Shown: piece after piece, positions 25,230-35,573 of the stretch
How the letters are laid out: each line of letters opens with the position of its first letter
How positions within the stretch are numbered: the first letter of the stretch is position 1
From: Solirubrobacterales bacterium
GTDB taxonomy: Bacteria > Actinomycetota > Thermoleophilia > Solirubrobacterales > 70-9
Assembly (NCBI GenBank): GCA_013821475.1
Contig: JACDGU010000003.1
Span: 1-48,946 of the forward strand
Direction of reading: 5' to 3'
Length of the DNA: 48,946 bases
Made by a program: the position numbers and the translations under genes
Notes under the pieces: generated by a model
Seen by the model: the letters and a program-made list of their open reading frames with translations, nothing else
The model's database searches: none
Told to the model about the DNA's origin: nothing

Positions 25230-25646
25230 TCAGGCAGCCTCGTGCAGCGCGGGCTCGAGTGCCGCGAGCGGCGTCTCCGCCGCGTGGCCGTCGCCGTTGG
25301 CGAGGCCATTGCCGTTGGTGGCGGGGGCCTGGGTCTGGAGCCGGTAGAAGTGCTCTGTGGCACCGCGAACCTGGCGCTGCCTGACCAGCACGATCAGGTC
25401 TGCTTTGTGGAGCTCGGTGACGTGGTAGTTGGTATTGCTGAGCGGAATCTGGAGCTCCTGGCTGAGGTCGCTGGGGGAGAGGGTGCGACCGCCGTCGAGC
25501 CCGAGGATTTCGAGGATCGAGACCCGCAGCGGGTGCGCCGTGGCTCGCGCCAGGTGCTCCCAATCCACCGGTATGGACCGCGGTCCGTTTCCAATCGCGC
25601 GGGCGGCGCCATTGCCATTCGCTGAGTGACCGTTGAGAGTGTCCAT
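25230..25646 (-). CDS. ArsR-like winged-helix transcriptional regulator
   Basis: LARATAHPLRVSILEILGLDGGRTLSPSDLSQELQIPLSNTNYHVTELHKADLIVLVRQRQVRGATEHFYRL; divergent from the paralog array. Confidence 0.85.
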   Translation of the reverse strand: MDTLNGHSANGNGAARAIGNGPRSIPVDWEHLARATAHPLRVSILEILGLDGGRTLSPSDLSQELQIPLSNTNYHVTELHKADLIVLVRQRQVRGATEHFYRLQTQAPATNGNGLANGDGHAAETPLAALEPALHEAA

Positions 25647-25668
25647 GGCACGACTTTACCAAAAAATG

Positions 25669-25698
25669 TTGACGTGGGTCATCGAAATCGGGTATAAG
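25669..25698 (+). promoter_or_regulatory. Candidate sigma70-type promoter for paralog 1
   Basis: TTGACG (25669-25674), 18-bp spacer, TATAAG (25693-25698); ATG follows at 25708. Confidence 0.55.
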
Positions 25699-25707
25699 TC
25701 CAACGGG

Positions 25708-28599
25708 ATGTTTCCTTGGAGGGGAAATGCAACTGGCGCAAGCTGGGGCCGTATCGCGATTGCCGCGATCGCGATGAGCCTGCTCATGGCGAGTCCGGCG
25801 CTGGCCAACACGGGCACGATCATCGCCCCGCAGCACCCGCCGGCCTACACGGCGACGGACGGTTGGCAGGCGGGCACCTGCAAGAAAGACACGCCGACAT
25901 GCAGCGTCGACACCCCCGAACAGTTCTTCGAACAGGCGGCGGGGCATCCCCCCGTCGGCTTCACCCAGTTCATCGTCGAACACACGACCACCACGGTCGG
26001 GCCGCTGACGTTCGAACAGCCGGTGGGGGAACTGGAGACCGTCCGCGTCGATCTCCCCGTCGGCCTCAGCGTCAATCCCGGCGCCACCGAACGCTGCCCC
26101 CTGGCGACCTTCGAAGCCGGTGCCAGCGGTTGTCCGGCCGGATCGAAAGTCGGCGAAAGCGCGGTCACGGCTGCGGCACCGCCGCTCGGGCTGCCAACGG
26201 AACCGGTTCCGGGGGTCACCTTGGTTCCCGTCTACAACGTGATTCCGTCCGCCGGCGAATCGGCCCGCTTCGGCCTCGAACTCGGCGGCAGTGAAGTCTT
26301 CCTCAAAGGCGACGTGGCCTGGGACGGCGACTATCACGAGGGATTCACGATCGCCGTTCCCAAAGCCCTGCCGGCGGCCGTCGAAGGCCTGATCCTCAAG
26401 AACCGACTCGTCTTCAACGGCCAGGCCGGGGACGGGACCTTCATCACCACGCCCAGCACCTGCCTTGGCGCCTCGACGCCGGGTCCATCGGGCAGCCTCT
26501 ACTCGACCTTCCTGCTTGCGGCTTCTTATGAAGAAGAGGCGCAGGCCGGCTATCAGTTCCCGCAGAGCGCCGAGCCGGCATTCGAGTCGCCGATTCCGCC
26601 GGGAACCTCGCCGAAAGAGTGCAACACGATCCCCTACGCGCCGACGGTCGCCGTCCAGCCGGGGACCGCCGAAACCGACTCGCCCGCCGGTGCTCAGGTC
26701 GAGGTCGACGTCCCCCACATCCTCGGCAAAGAAAACCAGGACAGCTCGACGACGCGGAGCGCGTCGGTGACCCTGCCGGGTGGGATGGGGATCAATCCCT
26801 CGGCGGCGAACGGGCTGGCCACCTGCACCGACGCGCAGTTCGCCAAGGGGACCAAAAACCCGATTGCCTGCCCAGCGGCCTCGCGGGTGGGGACGGTTAC
26901 GATCGAGTCCCCGGCACTGCCGGAAGGCAACCTCGAAGGCCCGGTTTTCGTCGGCCAGCAGCTCAGCCGCGACCCGACCTCCGGCCAGGAGTACCGCGTC
27001 TTCGTCGACGCCGAGTCGGCGCGCTACGGGATCTCCGTCCGCCTGGTCGGCAACGTCAGCGCCAACCCGGTGAGCGGGCAGCTGACGACGACCTTTGGCG
27101 AAACCCCGCAGGTCCCGTTCAGCGCCTTCCGGCTGAAGTTCGATCCGGGCGCGCGCGCCGTCCTCAGCAGCCCGCCGATCTGCGGCCCCAACACCACGGC
27201 GACCAAGCTCACCCCGTGGTCCGGCAATCCGGCGGCCAGCCCTTCGCGGACCTTCGCGCTGACCAAGGCGCCCGGCGGTGGTGCCTGCGCGAAGACGATG
27301 GCCGAACGGCCCTTCGCGCCGAGCTTCGCGGCGGCGCCGAAGAAGACCACCGCCGGCGCCTTCAGCCCGCTCTCGATCCACCTCGTCAGGCCCCCCGGGC
27401 AGCAGGAGCTGAAGGGGATCGACATCGAGCTGGCGCCGGGGATGACCGGCAAGCTCGCCGGGATTCCATATTGCAAAGGCCCGGCGCTGGCCGCTGCGGC
27501 GGCGCACTCCGGAGTGGTCGAGCAGGCCAGCTCGAGCTGCCCGGACAAGAGCCTCGTCGGCAGCGCTTCGATCGCAGCCGGGACCGGCACCGCGCCGCTG
27601 AAGATCGCCGGCAATGTCTTCCTCTCAGGCCCCTACCACGGGGCTCCTCTCTCCCTGGCAGTCGTCACCCCTGCCACGGCCGGGCCGTTCGATCTCGGCA
27701 CGACCGTGGTCAGGGTAGCGCTGTTCGTCGATCCCGAAACCGCCCGGATCGACGCTATCTCCGACCCGGTCCCGGACGTCTTCGGTGGCACCAAGCTCAG
27801 CATCCGCTCCGTCGACATCGAGATCAACCGCCCCAACTTCACCCTCAACCCGACCAGCTGTGACCCCCTCGCGACCGAAGCCGTCCTCCACGGCGGCGGC
27901 GCCGACCCCGCCAACCCGGCGGCCTTCAGCGCCTTCCCGGTCAGCGTCCCGTTCCAGACCTCCGACTGCGGGGCGCTGCGCTTCCGGCCGAAGCTCTACA
28001 CGCGGTTGTTCGGCGGGCGCAAGAAGACGAAACGCTCGCAGTTCCCCAAATTCCGCGCCGTCCTCCTCGCCCGCGAAGGCGACGCGAACATCGGCCGCGT
28101 CGCGCTCACCCTGCCCCACTCGGAGTTCCTCGAACAGGGCCACATCGGCACCATCTGCACCCGCGTCCAGCTGGCCGCCGCGGACTGCCCGGCGCGCTCG
28201 ATCTACGGCTACGCGACGGCGCAGACGCCGCTGCTCGACGACGAACTCTCCGGCCCGGTCTACCTGACCTCCTCCAGCCACGAACTGCCGGACCTGCTGG
28301 TCGACCTCAAGGGCCAGGTGGACGTCCGCCTGCGCGGCGTGATCAGCGCCACCAAGGCGAGGATCAAGACCGTCTTCAGCACCGTGCCGGACGTCCCGGT
28401 GAGCAAGTTCACGCTGACCATGCTGGGCGGCAAGCGCGGCCTGCTGGTCAACTCGCGCGATCTCTGCGCCCGGCCCTCTTTCTCCTTCCTCAACTTCAAA
28501 GCCCAGAACGGCAAGCGCTTGCGCAAGAAGCGGCTGCCGTTGAGAATGCCCGCCTGTAGCCGGCACCGTGGCGCGAAGAAGCGCAGCGGCGGCGATTGA
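25708..28599 (+). CDS. Large secreted repeat protein, paralog 1 (unknown function)
   Basis: Signal peptide MFPWRGNATGASWGRIAIAAIAMSLLMASPALA; FFEQAAGHPPVGFT motif; four internal repeats; collinear with the next two ORFs. Confidence 0.85.
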   Translation: MFPWRGNATGASWGRIAIAAIAMSLLMASPALANTGTIIAPQHPPAYTATDGWQAGTCKKDTPTCSVDTPEQFFEQAAGHPPVGFTQFIVEHTTTTVGPLTFEQPVGELETVRVDLPVGLSVNPGATERCPLATFEAGASGCPAGSKVGESAVTAAAPPLGLPTEPVPGVTLVPVYNVIPSAGESARFGLELGGSEVFLKGDVAWDGDYHEGFTIAVPKALPAAVEGLILKNRLVFNGQAGDGTFITTPSTCLGASTPGPSGSLYSTFLLAASYEEEAQAGYQFPQSAEPAFESPIPPGTSPKECNTIPYAPTVAVQPGTAETDSPAGAQVEVDVPHILGKENQDSSTTRSASVTLPGGMGINPSAANGLATCTDAQFAKGTKNPIACPAASRVGTVTIESPALPEGNLEGPVFVGQQLSRDPTSGQEYRVFVDAESARYGISVRLVGNVSANPVSGQLTTTFGETPQVPFSAFRLKFDPGARAVLSSPPICGPNTTATKLTPWSGNPAASPSRTFALTKAPGGGACAKTMAERPFAPSFAAAPKKTTAGAFSPLSIHLVRPPGQQELKGIDIELAPGMTGKLAGIPYCKGPALAAAAAHSGVVEQASSSCPDKSLVGSASIAAGTGTAPLKIAGNVFLSGPYHGAPLSLAVVTPATAGPFDLGTTVVRVALFVDPETARIDAISDPVPDVFGGTKLSIRSVDIEINRPNFTLNPTSCDPLATEAVLHGGGADPANPAAFSAFPVSVPFQTSDCGALRFRPKLYTRLFGGRKKTKRSQFPKFRAVLLAREGDANIGRVALTLPHSEFLEQGHIGTICTRVQLAAADCPARSIYGYATAQTPLLDDELSGPVYLTSSSHELPDLLVDLKGQVDVRLRGVISATKARIKTVFSTVPDVPVSKFTLTMLGGKRGLLVNSRDLCARPSFSFLNFKAQNGKRLRKKRLPLRMPACSRHRGAKKRSGGD

Positions 28600-28687
28600 T
28601 CCAAGCCGGCAGCGGGTACGTTGTGGCCAGGGGTTGGCAACGCCGACGATGAGACGCAGGTATGGGACAACTGCAGAAGGAGATTCG

Positions 28688-31510
28688 ATGAGCAGCAGGA
28701 CCGGGATTCTGGGTGCGATCATGGCGTTGGTCGCGTTGTCGCTTGCCGTGAGCGCTCCGGCGGCCGGCGCCGTCGACATCATCGAAGTTCAGTCAGAAAC
28801 GGCGCAGGCCGGTTGGCAGGCCGGAACCTGCCAGCTCGATCCCACCAATGAATGTTCCCCGGCCAAACCATCGCTCTTCTTCACGCAGGCGGCAGGGCAT
28901 CCGCCGGTGGGCTTCACTCAAATCATCGTCAAACACGGCACCGGCGCCGGGGAACCGCCGGTGGGGGACCTGAAAACCGTGCGCGTCGACCTGCCGCCCG
29001 GCCTCAGCGTCAACCCGCAGGCCACGGAACAGTGCTCGGTAGCCAATTTCAAAGCCAGTACCTGCCCGATCGGCTCAAAAGTCGGCGAAAGCTTCGTCAC
29101 CGCGAGCGCGCCGCCAATCACCGTGCCACTGACGGCGGCCGTCTACAACATCCAACCGGTGAACGGAGAACCGGCCCGGTTCGGGTTCATCCTCGCCGGC
29201 ACCGAAGTGATCCTCGAAGCCGGGGTCTCCTGGAGCACCGACTATCACGAGTACTTCACGATCCACGTCTCCAAAGTCGAACTGCCGCTGGGGCTGCTCG
29301 AAGCGCTGATCCCGGTGAAGATCCTCAAAAATCGTCTGGTCTTCAACGGCACCACTGGCCAGGGCGGTGCAGGCGGGGCCTTCCTCACGACCCCGAGCAC
29401 CTGCTTCAACCCGGAAGCGGATCCGTACCGGCACATCTACTCCACCTTCCTTCGCGCCGACTCCTACCAGGAACCTGCCGCGGGCTTCCCGGCCGGCTCC
29501 CAGGAACTCGAGGCTCCGCTGCCGAAAGGGGTGAAACCGACTGGCTGCGCCAACGTCCCGTTCAAGCCCTCGGTCGCTGCCGTGCCGGCGACTGTGCAGA
29601 CGGATTCGCCGGACGGACCGACGGTGGAAGTCGGCGTGCCCTTCGAAAGCGCCGCCGCGATCGCCAACTCGAACCTCCGCACCGCCCGGGTCTCGCTGCC
29701 CGTGGGCGAGGGCCTCAACCCTTCCGCCGCGACGGGGCTGCAGGCCTGCACCGACGCCCAGTTCGGCAAAGGGACGACCGCTGCGGTGGCATGTCCGGCC
29801 CCCTCGGAAGTCGGCACCGTCGCGATCCAGACGCCGGTGCTGCCGCCCAACTCCCTCACCGGCAAGGTCTATCTCGGCCAGCAGCTCAGCCGCGATCCAA
29901 CCTCAGGCAACGAGTACCGGATCTTCATCGACGCCGAGTCGGCGCGCTATGGCCAGTCCGTGCGCCTCGTCGGCAACGTCAGCGCGAATCCGAAAACGGG
30001 GCAGCTGACGGCAACGGTCAGTGAGGCACCGCAACTCCCGTTCACCTCGGTGAGCGTCAAGTTCAGCGGCACCAAAGGCGTTCTCACCAGCCCGCCGACC
30101 TGCGGCCCCAACCGCACGACTGGACTGCTGACGCCCTGGTCGGGCACCGCCGACGCCAGCATCGCCGACAAAGGCTTCACCCTGACCAAAGCGCCCGGCG
30201 GCGGCGCCTGCGCGAAGACGATGGCCCAGCGGCCCTTCGCACCGGGCTTCACCGCCCAGCCCGGGACCGGTGCGGCACTTGCCTACACGCCGTTCTCCGT
30301 CCACATCACCCGGCCCCAGGGTCAGCAGGAGCTGAAAGGCGTCGACCTGACGCTGCCCCCGGGGGCGACGGCAAAGCTCGCCGGCGTTCCCTACTGCCCG
30401 CCCTCCGACTTCAACGCGGCGGCGACCAAGTCGGGTGCCGCCGAGAAGAAAAATCCCAGCTGTCCCAACGACAGCAAGGTCGGTGTCGCCACGATTCAGG
30501 CCGGCACCGGCGCCATCCCGCTGGAGATCGAAGGCACCGCCTACCTCGCCGGCCCTTATAAAGGTGCCCCGCTCTCGATCGTCGTAGTCACCCCGGCCCT
30601 GGCGGGCCCGTTCGACCTCGGCACGGTCGTCGTCCGGGTGGCGCTGTTCCTCGATCCGGAAACGGCACAGATCCACCCGGTCGCGGAAATCCCCGACGTC
30701 TTCGGCGGTGCCAAGCTCGACATCCGCTCGATCGCCGTCAACGTCAACCGCAAGGAATTCACCCTCAACGGGACCAACTGCCAGAAAGGCGCGACCGCGG
30801 GTGTGCTGCGCGGGGGCGGGGCGGATCCGACCAACCCGGCGGCCTTCTCCTCGGCGCCGGTCTCCGACGCCTTCCAGGGGACCGGCTGTAAGCCGCTCAA
30901 GTTCAAGCCGAAGCTGAAGCTGCGGCTGTTCGGCGCGACCAAGCGCAACAAGAACCCGCGCCTGCGGGCGGCCCTCAACACCAAGCCCGGCAACGCCAAC
31001 CTGGCGCGGGTCTCGGTTGCACTGCCGCACGCGCTGTTCCTCGACCAGGCGAGCCTCTCGAAGGTCTGCACCCGGGTCCAGTTCGCCGCCCAGAATTGTC
31101 CGAAGAAGTCGATCTACGGCCACGCCCGCGCCTTCTCACCGCTGCTCGGCAAGCCGCTCGAAGGGCCGGTCTACCTGCGCTCCTCGAACAACCTGCTGCC
31201 GGACATGGTCGCCCACCTCGAAGGCCAGGTAGACATCGATCTGGACGGTCGGATCGACAGCTACAAGGGCGGCATCCGCACCACCTTCGACCGCGTCCCC
31301 GACGTCCCGGTGAGCAAATTCGTGCTGACGCTCCCCGGCGGCAAGCACGGCCTCCTCGTCGCCTCGACCAACCTCTGCAAGAAACCGGTGAAGGCGATCG
31401 TCCAGCTCAAAGGACAGAACGGCAAGAAGGCCAACCGGCACATGAAAGTGCGCACCCCCTGCGGCAAAAAGCACAAGAAGCAGGGGAAGCACAAGCAGCA
31501 CAAGCACTGA
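28688..31510 (+). CDS. Large secreted repeat protein, paralog 2 (unknown function)
   Basis: RBS AAGGAG upstream of ATG; signal peptide MSSRTGILGAIMALVALSLAVSAPAAGA; FFTQAAGHPPVGFT; four internal repeats. Confidence 0.9.
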   Translation: MSSRTGILGAIMALVALSLAVSAPAAGAVDIIEVQSETAQAGWQAGTCQLDPTNECSPAKPSLFFTQAAGHPPVGFTQIIVKHGTGAGEPPVGDLKTVRVDLPPGLSVNPQATEQCSVANFKASTCPIGSKVGESFVTASAPPITVPLTAAVYNIQPVNGEPARFGFILAGTEVILEAGVSWSTDYHEYFTIHVSKVELPLGLLEALIPVKILKNRLVFNGTTGQGGAGGAFLTTPSTCFNPEADPYRHIYSTFLRADSYQEPAAGFPAGSQELEAPLPKGVKPTGCANVPFKPSVAAVPATVQTDSPDGPTVEVGVPFESAAAIANSNLRTARVSLPVGEGLNPSAATGLQACTDAQFGKGTTAAVACPAPSEVGTVAIQTPVLPPNSLTGKVYLGQQLSRDPTSGNEYRIFIDAESARYGQSVRLVGNVSANPKTGQLTATVSEAPQLPFTSVSVKFSGTKGVLTSPPTCGPNRTTGLLTPWSGTADASIADKGFTLTKAPGGGACAKTMAQRPFAPGFTAQPGTGAALAYTPFSVHITRPQGQQELKGVDLTLPPGATAKLAGVPYCPPSDFNAAATKSGAAEKKNPSCPNDSKVGVATIQAGTGAIPLEIEGTAYLAGPYKGAPLSIVVVTPALAGPFDLGTVVVRVALFLDPETAQIHPVAEIPDVFGGAKLDIRSIAVNVNRKEFTLNGTNCQKGATAGVLRGGGADPTNPAAFSSAPVSDAFQGTGCKPLKFKPKLKLRLFGATKRNKNPRLRAALNTKPGNANLARVSVALPHALFLDQASLSKVCTRVQFAAQNCPKKSIYGHARAFSPLLGKPLEGPVYLRSSNNLLPDMVAHLEGQVDIDLDGRIDSYKGGIRTTFDRVPDVPVSKFVLTLPGGKHGLLVASTNLCKKPVKAIVQLKGQNGKKANRHMKVRTPCGKKHKKQGKHKQHKH

Positions 31511-31516
31511 GCCGCG

Positions 31517-31533
31517 AGCGCCGCTGGGGCGCT
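31517..31533 (+). terminator. Candidate hairpin after paralog 2
   Basis: AGCGCC-GCTGG-GGCGCT followed by TTT. Confidence 0.5.
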
Positions 31534-31678
31534 TTGAACCGGATCTCCAATCCATACCGGACTTGATTCTTGGTCGTGTGACCAGCTAGTCTCGCCAGTG
31601 GGAACAGTCCTGGGAAGGCTGTGAGTAGCGTCATGCAGGGGCGGCGTTGTCCGCTCATTGGGGAATACAGGAGGGTTT

Positions 31679-34465
31679 ATGGCTAGGCGCTTGTTGCTCG
31701 TGTTTGCCGTGATGGCTTTGGGTGCCGTTTTCGTGGCGCCCGCTGCGCACGCGGCTTTCGGGATCGAAAAATGGGAATCGCTCACCTGCAACGCAGATGA
31801 AGAGACCCCGAAAGTCGGTGAAGAACCAATTGTCGGCAAACCGCCGTTGCCGCCCCCGGCGGGTCGCTGCACTGGGGCCACCGCCGGCAAATTCTTCACT
31901 CAAGCCGCCGGCCACCCGGACTTCGGGATCACCGACTTCACCCTCAATACCATCGCCACTCCAGGAGCAATCGGCTTCCCCGAAGGCTTCATTAAAAGAA
32001 TCGTCGTGAACACGCCCGAAGGATTGAGCGTCAATCCGGAAGCGGTGCCACAGTGCTCGCTCGCTCAGCTGAGCATCAACAAATGCCCGGCTGCGTCCCA
32101 GGTGGGAGTCAACTACCTGACGTTTGCGGCTCAGACGCCGCCCTGTACGGTGCCCTTCGCGGGCAAATGCGCGAACGGCCGAGTGGCGCTCCCGGTCTTC
32201 AACATGGTTCCGTTCGAAGGCGTGCCATCGATGGTGACGTTCCTGACCGAAACGGGAGCGACCTTCATCGTCGGTTCGCTCGACCCGGTTGATCAGCATG
32301 TCATCTTCACGATCGACCCGGTGCACCTGCCTCAGGCCGGGCCGCCGAAAAGCCCCCCTGTGGTCGGATCGAGGTTGGTCTTCAACGGCAAAGCTGGCAA
32401 CGGCACCTATCTGACGATGCCGAGCAACTGCGCCGGCGGTCAGATCACGAAACTCAACGTCAACTCCTACGAAGGTGGGGCCGACGAAGAATCGTATGAA
32501 ACGTCGGTCGGAGCCGAAGGCTGCGAAAACGTGCCCTTCAAACCGACGATCGCCGTCACGCCTCAGGGCGGCGCTGTCGACTCGCCGGAAGCGACCACCG
32601 TCAACGTGGGGATTCCGTTTGACGCGACGAAAGCAATCGCCAACTCGTACCTGAAAGAAGCGAAAGTGACGCTGCCCGAAGGGATGGGCCTGAATCCGGC
32701 TTCGGCCAACGGGCTCGTCGCCTGCACCGATGCGCAGTTCGGCTACCACACGAACAACCCGATCGCCTGCCCGGTCGCATCGCAGATCGGCACCGTCGAG
32801 GTCCAGACCCCGTCGCTGCCGGCTGACTCGCTGACCGGTGAGGTCTACGTCGGCCAGCCGAAAAGCAACGACCCGAGCAGCGGCGAACAGTTCCGGATCT
32901 TCATCCACGCCGGATCCACCCGCTACGGGGTCAACGTGCGCCTGATCGGGCACGTGTTCCCGAACCTGGCGACCGGTCAGCTGACCGCCGTCGTGCCGGA
33001 AAACCCGCAGGCGACGTTCAGCTCCTTCAAGCTCCGCTTCTTCGGCGGCGCCAAAGGCACGCTGACCTCGCCCCCCACCTGCGGTCCCAACGTCACGACG
33101 ACGTTGATGACCCCGTGGTCGGGTCACGCCGACGCGAACACCCCGACCGGGAGCTTCGTGCTCACCAGCGATCCGAGCGGCGGCAGCTGCCCGGCGACGC
33201 TGGGCGCGCGTCCGTTCAATCCCGGCTACACGGCAAAGTCGAACAGCAGCGCGGCCCGGGCCTACAGCCCGTTCACGGTGCACATCGGGCGCGCCGACGG
33301 GCAGCAGGAGCTGAAAGCGGTCAACGTGACCCTGCCGAAGGGTCTCGTCGGCAACCTCAGCGGCATCCCCTACTGCTCCGCAGGCGCCCTCGCGGCGGCG
33401 GCGGCCAGCAGCGGTGTGGCTCAGCTCGCCAATTACAGCTGTCCCGCGGCAAGCGAAATCGGCACCACGACGACCGCCGCCGGCAGTGGCAGCGGCCCGA
33501 TCAAGATCGCCGGCAAGGCATTCCTCGCCGGTCCTTACAAGGGGGCGCCGCTGTCGATGGCGATCATCACCCCGGGTGTCGCCGGTCCTTACGACGTCGG
33601 CACGATTGTCGTCCGGGTGGCGCTCAACGTGAATCCCGAAACCGCCCAGATCAACGCGGTCTCGGATCCGATTCCGAACGTGTTCGGCGGGGTCAAGCTG
33701 GACATCCGCTCGATCGACGTCAACGTCGACAGGACGAAGTTCATGCTCAACCCGACCAGTTGCGCGGCCCAGGCAACGACCGGTGCGATCAACGGTGGCG
33801 GCTCCAACCCCGCCAACCCGGCCGCGTTCAGCTCCTACGCGGTCAGCGATCCGTACTCGGCGACGGGCTGTGACAGCCTGAAGTTCAAGCCGAAGCTGCA
33901 CGTCCGGCTCAAGGGCGGGACGACGAGGAACAAGAACCCGCAGCTGCGGGCCGTGCTGGAAGCACGGGAAGGCGACGCCAACATCAGCCGCACCGCGTTG
34001 ACGATGCCGCACTCGCTGTTCCTCGATCAAAGCCACATCGGCACCGTCTGCACCCGGCCGCAGCTGGCCACGCAGACCTGCCCGGCCGCGTCGATCTACG
34101 GCAAGGCGGAAGCGGTGACGCCGCTGCTCAGCGAAAAGCTGAAGGGCAACGTCTACCTCGTCTCCTCCGACCACAAATTGCCGGACCTGCTCGCCGATCT
34201 GCGCGGTCAGGTGAACATCCAGTTGCGCGGCGTCATCAGCTCCCAGAAAGGCGGGCTGAAGACGGTGTTCAACTCGGTGCCGGACGTGCCGGTGAAGAAG
34301 TTCGTGCTCAACATGAACGGCGGCAAGAAGAGCCTGTTGGTCAACTCGACCAACACCTGCAAGGGCAAGCAGTTCGCCGTGCTCAACATCAAGGGGCAGA
34401 ACGGCGCTCAGGTCAAGAACAACAAGTTCGGCCTGAACATCGCCTCCTGCGGCAAGAAGAAGTAA
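31679..34465 (+). CDS. Large secreted repeat protein, paralog 3 (unknown function)
   Basis: RBS CAGGAGGG; signal peptide MARRLLLVFAVMALGAVFVAPAAHA; FFTQAAGHPDFGIT; four internal repeats. Confidence 0.9.
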   Translation: MARRLLLVFAVMALGAVFVAPAAHAAFGIEKWESLTCNADEETPKVGEEPIVGKPPLPPPAGRCTGATAGKFFTQAAGHPDFGITDFTLNTIATPGAIGFPEGFIKRIVVNTPEGLSVNPEAVPQCSLAQLSINKCPAASQVGVNYLTFAAQTPPCTVPFAGKCANGRVALPVFNMVPFEGVPSMVTFLTETGATFIVGSLDPVDQHVIFTIDPVHLPQAGPPKSPPVVGSRLVFNGKAGNGTYLTMPSNCAGGQITKLNVNSYEGGADEESYETSVGAEGCENVPFKPTIAVTPQGGAVDSPEATTVNVGIPFDATKAIANSYLKEAKVTLPEGMGLNPASANGLVACTDAQFGYHTNNPIACPVASQIGTVEVQTPSLPADSLTGEVYVGQPKSNDPSSGEQFRIFIHAGSTRYGVNVRLIGHVFPNLATGQLTAVVPENPQATFSSFKLRFFGGAKGTLTSPPTCGPNVTTTLMTPWSGHADANTPTGSFVLTSDPSGGSCPATLGARPFNPGYTAKSNSSAARAYSPFTVHIGRADGQQELKAVNVTLPKGLVGNLSGIPYCSAGALAAAAASSGVAQLANYSCPAASEIGTTTTAAGSGSGPIKIAGKAFLAGPYKGAPLSMAIITPGVAGPYDVGTIVVRVALNVNPETAQINAVSDPIPNVFGGVKLDIRSIDVNVDRTKFMLNPTSCAAQATTGAINGGGSNPANPAAFSSYAVSDPYSATGCDSLKFKPKLHVRLKGGTTRNKNPQLRAVLEAREGDANISRTALTMPHSLFLDQSHIGTVCTRPQLATQTCPAASIYGKAEAVTPLLSEKLKGNVYLVSSDHKLPDLLADLRGQVNIQLRGVISSQKGGLKTVFNSVPDVPVKKFVLNMNGGKKSLLVNSTNTCKGKQFAVLNIKGQNGAQVKNNKFGLNIASCGKKK

Positions 34466-34493: not shown

Positions 34494-34533
34494 GCACCGA
34501 CGCGGAAGGCCAATTAGCCTCCCGCGTCGGTGC
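34494..34533. repeat. Strong 17-bp-arm inverted repeat overlapping the GT2 start codon
   Basis: GCACCGACGCGGAAGGC-CAATTA-GCCTCCCGCGTCGGTGC, one mismatch. Confidence 0.8.
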
Positions 34534-35573
34534 AACCGTCGCTCTCAATCCTGATCGTCGCCTGGAACAGCCGTGAGGAGCTGAACCGGACGATTCCGGC
34601 GCTGCTCCCGGAGCTGGGCGACGGCGACGAGCTGGTGATCGTGGACAACGATTCCAGCGACGGCACAACCGAGGCCCTGCTCGAGCTGGCGCCCAAGGCA
34701 CGGATCCTGCAGATGGGGCGCAACGCCGGCTTCGCCGCCGCCTGCAACGCCGGCGCCGCCGTGGCCATGGGAGGCCTGCTCGTCATCCTCAATCCCGATG
34801 CGGCGCCGCTGCCGGGCTTCGGCGAGGCGATCCGCAGGCCCTGGCTCGAAGGCCGCGACTGGGCCGCGTGGCAGGCGCTGGTCGCCGAGGAGGGGGGGAC
34901 GCGGATCAACTCAGTCGGCAACCCGGTCCACTTCACCGGGATCGTCTGGGCCGGCGGCCACGGGCGCCCGCTCGCCGAGGCTCCCCCGGCCGGCGAGGTC
35001 ATCGCCCTCTCCGGCGCCTGTCTGGCGATCCCGCTCGCGACCTGGCGCCAGCTCGGCGGCTTCCCCGAGCATTTCTTCCTCTACCACGAGGACGTCGACC
35101 TCTCGCTGCGGCTGCGGCTGCGCGGCGACACCCTCGGGATCGAACCGGCGGCGGTCGTCGCCCACGACTACGAGTTCGGCGCCAGCACCCAGAAGTGGCG
35201 CTGGCTGGAGCGCAACCGCCTCGCCTTCCTCGTCCGCGTCTACCCGGCCCCGTTGCTGGTCCTGCTGGCGCCGATGCTGCTGGCAACCGAGCTGGCCCTG
35301 TTCGTCGTCTCGAGTCGCCGCGGCTGGGGAGGCCAGAAGTTGACCGCCGACCGCGAAGCGCTGCGCTGGCTGCCGCGGCTGCTGCGCGAGCGCCGCCAGA
35401 TCCAGCGCACCCGCGCCGTCAGCAGCGCCGAGTTCGCCTCCTGGCTTACTCCCGATCTCGACTCGCCCTACATCGCCGCCGCCGCCCGCTCGGGGCCCGC
35501 CCGCCTGCTCCTGCGCGGCTACTGGCGCGCAGTCCGGCTCCTGCTCGGCCGCGGCCATTCCATGGTTCCTTAA
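34530..35573 (+). CDS. Glycosyltransferase family 2 (rhamnosyltransferase-like)
   Basis: SLSILIVAWNSREELNRTIPAL...LVIVDNDSSDGTTEAL...GRNAGFAAACNAGAA...LNPDAAP...FFLYHEDVDLSLRLRLRG. Confidence 0.93.
   Translation: MQPSLSILIVAWNSREELNRTIPALLPELGDGDELVIVDNDSSDGTTEALLELAPKARILQMGRNAGFAAACNAGAAVAMGGLLVILNPDAAPLPGFGEAIRRPWLEGRDWAAWQALVAEEGGTRINSVGNPVHFTGIVWAGGHGRPLAEAPPAGEVIALSGACLAIPLATWRQLGGFPEHFFLYHEDVDLSLRLRLRGDTLGIEPAAVVAHDYEFGASTQKWRWLERNRLAFLVRVYPAPLLVLLAPMLLATELALFVVSSRRGWGGQKLTADREALRWLPRLLRERRQIQRTRAVSSAEFASWLTPDLDSPYIAAAARSGPARLLLRGYWRAVRLLLGRGHSMVP

What the first reader, a model, noticed from the sequence alone, without database searches (positions are those of the whole stretch)
25708..34465. 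Tandem array of three giant secreted paralogs of unknown function
Three consecutive same-strand ORFs encode ~930-960 aa proteins with signal peptides and collinear similarity throughout. All share a FF[TE]QAAGHPxxG[FI]T motif after a short N-terminal region, and strings such as 'DPTSGxEYRxFxDAESARYG', 'VRLVGNVSANP', 'SPPxCGPN', 'AGPFDLGTxVVRVAL', 'DPETA' and 'VPDVPVSKFxLT'. I recognise no catalytic, anchoring or named adhesin domain. Tandem triplication of ~2.8-kb secreted genes next to a dedicated-looking regulator is the best candidate here for an undescribed surface/exported system.
Basis: partly seen in the sequence, partly recalled or inferred. Interest (0 to 1): 0.85.

Follow-up and report, generated by a model that had tools for sequence, protein, structure and literature searches.

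The report
Modular secreted rod-protein gene array
Three neighbouring genes in a soil actinobacterium make exported proteins built from four repeated, disulfide-rich Ig-like modules; they belong to a large protein family, absent from the databases tested here, that is restricted to one bacterial order, grows by adding module pairs, and probably forms rods on the cell surface.

Summary
In detail: three collinear, exported paralogs (A 963, B 943, C 928 aa; 48-55% identical) with no Pfam, NCBIfam or PDB sequence match. (1) Each protein is four related ~220-aa Ig-like beta-sandwich modules with two conserved Cys pairs each; AlphaFold models are confident (pLDDT 91-92). (2) The family follows a strict grammar, M1-(M2-M3)n-M4: n=0 (~600 aa), n=1 (here), n=9, 11 and 15 (4,643-7,223 aa). 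(3) This is one locus among many: about 21 genes in its 2.7-Mb genome (~2.5% of it). The family occurs in half of the genomes sampled from its order (Solirubrobacterales) and in none sampled elsewhere in the phylum. (4) The triplet is old: A, B and C form positional ortholog clades in the same ccm gene neighbourhood in related genomes, behind a divergent winged-helix regulator and a palindromic promoter-operator that occurs once per genome. Most likely function (inferred): disulfide-stabilised surface or matrix rods, like fibrillar-adhesin stalks, with a variable N-terminal head and a basic C-terminal tail that may hold them to the wall. Location, ligand and anchoring are untested. A new family of a known functional kind, with an unusually clean repeat grammar.

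The parts
25230..25646 (-). winged-helix regulator (HTH_20, ArsR/MarR-like), divergent from gene A
   Evidence: Pfam HTH_20 1.5e-9; ortholog at the same place in 8 other genomes
25657..25694 (+). palindromic promoter-operator TACCAAAAAATGTTGACGTGGGTCATCGAAATCGGGTA; contains -35 TTGACG, and -10 TATAAG starts at 25693
   Evidence: conserved in 9 genomes; one match in the own genome with up to 3 mismatches; one site per genome in 9 of 12 relatives, reversed-pattern control 0
25708..28599 (+). gene A: exported protein M1-M2-M3-M4, 963 aa
   Evidence: ATG is about 9 nt after the -10, possibly leaderless (inference)
28679..31510 (+). gene B: exported protein M1-M2-M3-M4, 943 aa, Lys/His-rich C-tail
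31679..34465 (+). gene C: exported protein M1-M2-M3-M4, 928 aa
   Evidence: AlphaFold2 pLDDT 91.3, pTM 0.84
31874..32524 (+). gene C module M1 (N-cap, residues 66-282), most variable module
32525..33190 (+). gene C module M2 (residues 283-504), modelled alone
   Evidence: AlphaFold2 pLDDT 92.5, pTM 0.89
33191..33871 (+). gene C module M3 (residues 505-731), most conserved module
33872..34462 (+). gene C module M4 (C-cap, residues 732-928) plus basic tail
34530..35573 (+). family 2 glycosyltransferase, next gene downstream; kept next to C in related genomes
   Evidence: Pfam Glycos_transf_2 2.6e-16; synteny. Role in the array is unproven

Best explanation
The three genes encode members of an undescribed family, specific to the order Solirubrobacterales, of exported modular rod proteins. 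Shown by computation: each is a string of four related Ig-like beta-sandwich modules with two conserved Cys pairs per module, following the grammar M1 (N-cap), n copies of the alternating pair M2-M3, M4 (C-cap). The proteins are predicted to be exported. Many paralogs carry extra N-terminal domains, some DUF11-like or Fn3-like. Most have a Lys/Arg-rich C-terminus with no sortase motif or apparent membrane anchor. Inferred: the modules stack into a stiff disulfide-locked rod whose length is set by n; the fast-evolving M1 end or the added N-terminal domains face outwards and bind or interlock; the basic tail holds the protein to anionic wall polymers. The family would work like a fibrillar-adhesin stalk or matrix fibre. 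The A-B-C cassette is a set of three specialised, co-oriented versions under one divergent winged-helix regulator acting on one palindromic promoter.
For: Internal four-fold repeat: hhalign probability 95-99.6 for all module pairs, against at most 4.1 for reversed and at most 0.3 for column-shuffled controls. Sixteen invariant or near-invariant Cys, four per module. Confident all-beta models. Grammar without exception in the complete giants and two-module forms and 85 ORFs with n=1; the single odd string is the ORF L069:4804-8538. Fold neighbours are mainly cell-surface Ig-like proteins: MSCRAMM collagen-binding domains, pilin backbones, integrin alpha, fibrillar-adhesin CLIPPER domain, BslA hydrophobin. 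M1 is the most variable module, mean pairwise identity 0.30 versus 0.40-0.47. C-tails have a median of 8 K/R and 0 D/E in the last 25 residues. Cassette: synteny, ortholog clades A/B/C with SH-aLRT 99-100, unique operator.
Against: No fold match is strong: single-module E at least 3.7e-3 with TM up to 0.62 of the short target, and full-length TM at most 0.16, so the adhesin-like reading rests on a generic fold. No known adhesive or anchoring domain was found. No expression or localisation data. Several polar residues conserved in M3 (R538, D639, R646, R677) are unexplained.
Confidence: 0.6

Rival explanations
1. Bulk coat or biofilm-matrix protein: the family self-assembles into a surface layer or hydrophobic film (BslA- or S-layer-like) rather than acting as individual adhesive stalks.
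For: About 2.5% of the genome is spent on it; BslA is among the better single-module fold neighbours (prob 1.00, TMt 0.62); one dedicated promoter for the cassette.
Against: Many divergent paralogs with different N-terminal domains fit specialised binders better than one bulk coat; BslA shows only a generic Ig-like topology; no S-layer domain was reported by Pfam.
Confidence: 0.2
2. Secreted carbohydrate- or nutrient-binding scaffold: the modules bind polysaccharides or peptides, perhaps with secreted hydrolases.
For: Cohesin modules appear among fold neighbours; in one clade a predicted secreted S15/CocE-like peptidase gene sits between B and C.
Against: No carbohydrate-binding or dockerin family matched; the peptidase is absent from the window and from several other arrays.
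Confidence: 0.12
3. The proteins take part in cytochrome c maturation or extracellular redox chemistry, since they sit among ccmH, tlpA/ccmG, ccmE and ccmF.
For: Position inside the ccm neighbourhood is conserved; each protein has 18-20 Cys.
Against: No CxxCH heme site in A, B or C; Cys sit at fixed, evenly repeated module positions as for structural disulfides; the other family genes of this genome lie on other contigs.
Confidence: 0.03
4. An unrecognised enzyme family.
For: A few polar residues are nearly invariant in M3 and M4 (R538, D639, R646, R677, D869).
Against: Invariant positions are mostly Gly, Pro and Cys, no catalytic family matched, and tandem expansion to 15 M2-M3 pairs suits a structural role.
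Confidence: 0.05

Closest known systems
Fibrillar adhesins (FA-like proteins; PMC9210967)
   Same: Long exported proteins, repeated Ig-like stalk modules, variable repeat number, extra N-terminal domains
   Different: No known adhesive domain or sortase anchor; modules match no Pfam stalk family; alternating two-type repeat between dedicated caps; two conserved Cys pairs per module
DUF11 / collagen-binding MSCRAMM Ig-like domains (CNA, CNM, Ace)
   Same: Similar Ig-like beta-sandwich topology by Foldseek; a DUF11 protein is the top viral-library hit
   Different: No Pfam match; profile comparison of the modules with the DUF11-like N-terminal domains of this same family gave only 0.1-3.7% probability; modules are ~220 aa with two Cys pairs
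Giant1-5 surface proteins of Apilactobacillus kunkeei (PMC12863079)
   Same: Consecutive genes for large extracellular proteins, with positional homologs, taking a notable share of the genome
   Different: Giant1-4 carry an N-terminal beta-solenoid domain; no module of that kind here; different phylum
BslA biofilm hydrophobin
   Same: Ig-like fold neighbour of one module (prob 1.00, TMt 0.62)

Membership tests
Fibrillar adhesin (PMC9210967) | large exported protein | tested here: met
   signal-peptide-like N-termini; about 900-1,800 aa, up to 7,223 aa
Fibrillar adhesin (PMC9210967) | rod-like repetitive region of stalk domains | tested here: met
   module repeats by hhalign with controls, M1-(M2-M3)n-M4. 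The repeat is shown; the rod shape itself is inferred
Fibrillar adhesin (PMC9210967) | known adhesive domain | tested here: not met
   no Pfam match in A, B, C; only weak Fn3 and an Ig_2 match in N-extensions of paralogs
Fibrillar adhesin (PMC9210967) | cell-surface anchor | tested here: inconclusive
   no LPxTG in A, B, C; basic C-tail in most members. The paper itself finds an anchor in only about half of its training set
DUF11 (PF01345) | match to the Pfam model | tested here: not met
   no Pfam hit up to E=1; modules versus DUF11-like extension at most 3.7%
S-layer protein | two-dimensional lattice on cells | not testable with these tools
   needs electron microscopy
Multiheme cytochrome | CxxCH heme-binding motifs | tested here: not met
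   none in A, B, C

The most novel reading that the evidence does not exclude
A new, order-specific class of extracellular fibre: disulfide-locked rods built by a cap-(alternating pair)n-cap grammar, whose length has been tuned by evolution from 2 to 32 modules and which forms a major, paralog-rich surface of Solirubrobacterales, with a dedicated single-operator switch for one ancestral three-member cassette.
Probability: 0.35. Interest if true: 0.75.

Novelty: new variant of a known kind. Interest (0 to 1): 0.58.

Why it matters
Solirubrobacterales are common but poorly cultivated soil actinobacteria. A family absent from Pfam and NCBIfam that takes about 2.5% of a genome, is found in half of the sampled genomes of the order and in none sampled outside it, is a good candidate for a major part of their unknown cell surface. 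The clean grammar makes a test of how repeat number sets rod length directly possible, and the single palindromic operator makes the regulation directly testable.

Tried and rejected
Pfam and NCBIfam up to E=1: nothing for A, B, C. PDB by sequence: none; by profile only antibody light chains at E 0.18 or worse, treated as chance. Full-length Foldseek against PDB and viral models gave only generic multi-Ig proteins with low TM. Homology of the modules to DUF11 by profile was not supported. Heme or ccm function rejected for lack of CxxCH. The first operator pattern was too strict for the window's own copy, then relaxed. One large alignment had no stretch conserved enough for a collection scan. 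Literature searches found no description of the family. The Thermoleophilia signature-protein paper (PMC6544083) lists a 993-aa protein of unknown function; whether it belongs here could not be tested. A viral origin was rejected: the one IMG/VR hit (L091) carries the bacterial A-B-C array.

Full report
OBSERVATION. From the likely ATG starts they are 963, 943 and 928 aa, collinear and 48-55% identical, each with a signal-peptide-like N-terminus. Orthologs evolve under purifying selection, dN/dS 0.20-0.41.

KNOWN FAMILIES. Pfam and NCBIfam give nothing up to E=1. The PDB gives nothing by single sequence and only chance-level antibody light chains by profile.

ANATOMY. An alignment of 69 relatives shows 16 invariant or nearly invariant cysteines falling into four groups of four: 126/136 and 251/282; 349/364 and 468/504; 566/588 and 695/731; 791/801 and 894/924, in numbering of C from 31679. 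Splitting the alignment into four pieces and comparing their profiles gives 95-99.6% probability for every pair; reversed and column-shuffled controls stay at or below 4.1%. So each protein is a four-fold repeat, M1-M2-M3-M4. The pairing of the cysteines into disulfides is inferred, not shown.

GRAMMAR. Module profiles show that other members obey M1-(M2-M3)n-M4. Two-module proteins of 577-676 aa are M1-M4, n=0. 85 ORFs in the fetched loci are n=1, most of the rest being cut by contig ends. Giants in one genus have n=9 (4,643 aa, G190), n=11 (5,628 aa, G170) and n=15 (7,223 aa, G173) in single open frames. Within the G170 and G173 giants, repeats of one type are 0.24-0.71 identical, so these are not assembly duplications of one unit. 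One ORF, L069:4804-8538, gave M1-M2-M2-M3-M4, with one M2 match possibly split. In the L089 locus and in the second family member of L054 (11562-14454) the family gene is split between overlapping frames.

STRUCTURE. AlphaFold2 of C with 69 sequences: pLDDT 91.3, pTM 0.84, almost all beta. M2 alone: pLDDT 92.5, pTM 0.89. Foldseek of the whole model finds only strings of Ig-like domains (integrin alpha, alpha2-macroglobulin, adhesins) with TM at most 0.16 in the listed PDB hits with E up to 0.001, apart from short targets. The single module finds, weakly (best E 3.7e-3), MSCRAMM collagen-binding domains, integrin alpha, pilin backbones, a fibrillar-adhesin CLIPPER domain, cohesins and BslA (TMt up to 0.62). 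I read this as a generic Ig-like surface-protein fold without a specific homolog. The top viral-library hit is a DUF11 protein, but a profile test against the DUF11-like N-terminal domains found in this same family gave 3.7% at best.

GENOME AND TAXON RANGE. The window's genome (2.72 Mb, 89.6% complete) has 18 complete four-module genes, three cut at contig ends and two M4 fragments; together 68.8 kb of open frame, about 2.5%. Many carry N-terminal extensions of up to several hundred residues. Named relatives are Solirubrobacterales: Conexibacter, Patulibacter and many MAGs; a single hit in a 'Phenylobacterium' MAG is probably a mis-binned contig. In the own order 81 of 158 genomes are positive. 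In a phylum-wide draw of 397 genomes all 10 positives are in the own order, as are all 14 of a 149-genome class draw. Distant forms below this sensitivity are not excluded.

THE CASSETTE. In seven other genomes the HTH gene and A-B-C keep the same order, followed by the glycosyltransferase, usually a short-chain dehydrogenase, then ccmE and ccmF where the contig reaches that far; where the other side is covered, tlpA, ccmH and argS lie beyond the HTH gene. A genome of another genus (L099) has the HTH gene and a single family gene between it and SDR-ccmE-ccmF. A tree puts the first, second and third genes of each array into separate clades with SH-aLRT 100, 99 and 99; some non-array genes fall in the third clade. 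The triplication is therefore older than the sampled genus members and has been kept. In one clade a gene for a predicted secreted S15/CocE-like peptidase (recognised by eye, not by a family search) lies between B and C.

REGULATION. Between the divergent HTH gene and A lies a conserved palindrome, TACCnAAAA...TTTCGGGTA, which overlaps a -35 (TTGA) and a -10. In the own genome a 38-base pattern with up to 3 mismatches finds only this copy, at 25657-25694. In 9 of 12 relatives a similar pattern finds exactly one site, and the reversed-pattern control finds none; in the arrays read here it lies directly upstream of gene A. That the HTH protein binds it is inference from position and symmetry. 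The conserved ATG about 9 nt after the -10 suggests a near-leaderless transcript for A (inference).

FUNCTION. Export, repeat grammar, conserved Cys pairs, Ig-like fold, most variable M1 (mean identity 0.30 versus 0.40-0.47 for the others), added N-terminal domains and a basic C-tail (median 8 K/R, 0 D/E in the last 25 residues) together point to a rod presented at the surface with an outward N-terminus and a wall-facing C-terminus. Fibrillar adhesins are described as having an adhesive region, a rod-like repeat region and an anchor (PMC9210967). Here the repeat criterion is met, a known adhesive domain is not, and the anchor is unclear. So it may work like such a stalk, but I do not file it as a member.

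NOVELTY. No description of the family was found in the papers searched; most subscription journals and preprints are not covered. I rate it a new variant of a known kind.

Noticed in passing
L128:2695-16623(-), L102:2088-18971(+), L103+L104 (G173:C7): Single open frames of 4,643, 5,628 and 7,223 aa made of 9, 11 and 15 alternating M2-M3 pairs between an M1 and an M4 cap.
   Followed up: yes
L105:5606-7384(-), L106:5807-7537(+), L107:5214-7016(-), L108:5610-7637(-): Two-module (M1-M4) family members of 577-676 aa with a further basic C-terminal region, in other genera of the order.
   Followed up: partly
L095:10963-13407, L098:7479-9812, L038:1097-3583, L093:7803-10166(-): A predicted secreted S15/CocE-like peptidase gene inserted between B and C in one clade (recognised by eye only).
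   Followed up: partly
L014:6815-11197(-), L014:1282-5904(-), L063:3274-8694, L059:3670-8589: N-terminal extensions of paralogs look DUF11-like, Fn3-like or Ig-like; Pfam supports only weak Fn3-type matches and one Ig_2 match.
   Followed up: partly
L091: A contig in the viral collection (IMGVR_UViG_3300043481_000001) carries this bacterial A-B-C array, so it is probably misclassified bacterial DNA.
   Followed up: no
L086: A 'Phenylobacterium' MAG contig encodes a family member; probably a mis-binned Solirubrobacterales contig.
   Followed up: no
L089:1-2836, L054:11562-14454: Family genes split between two overlapping frames, which suggests a frameshift (sequencing error or real decay).
   Followed up: no
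window:23025-23705: A gene next to argS without any Pfam match, kept at the same place in two other genomes.
   Followed up: no
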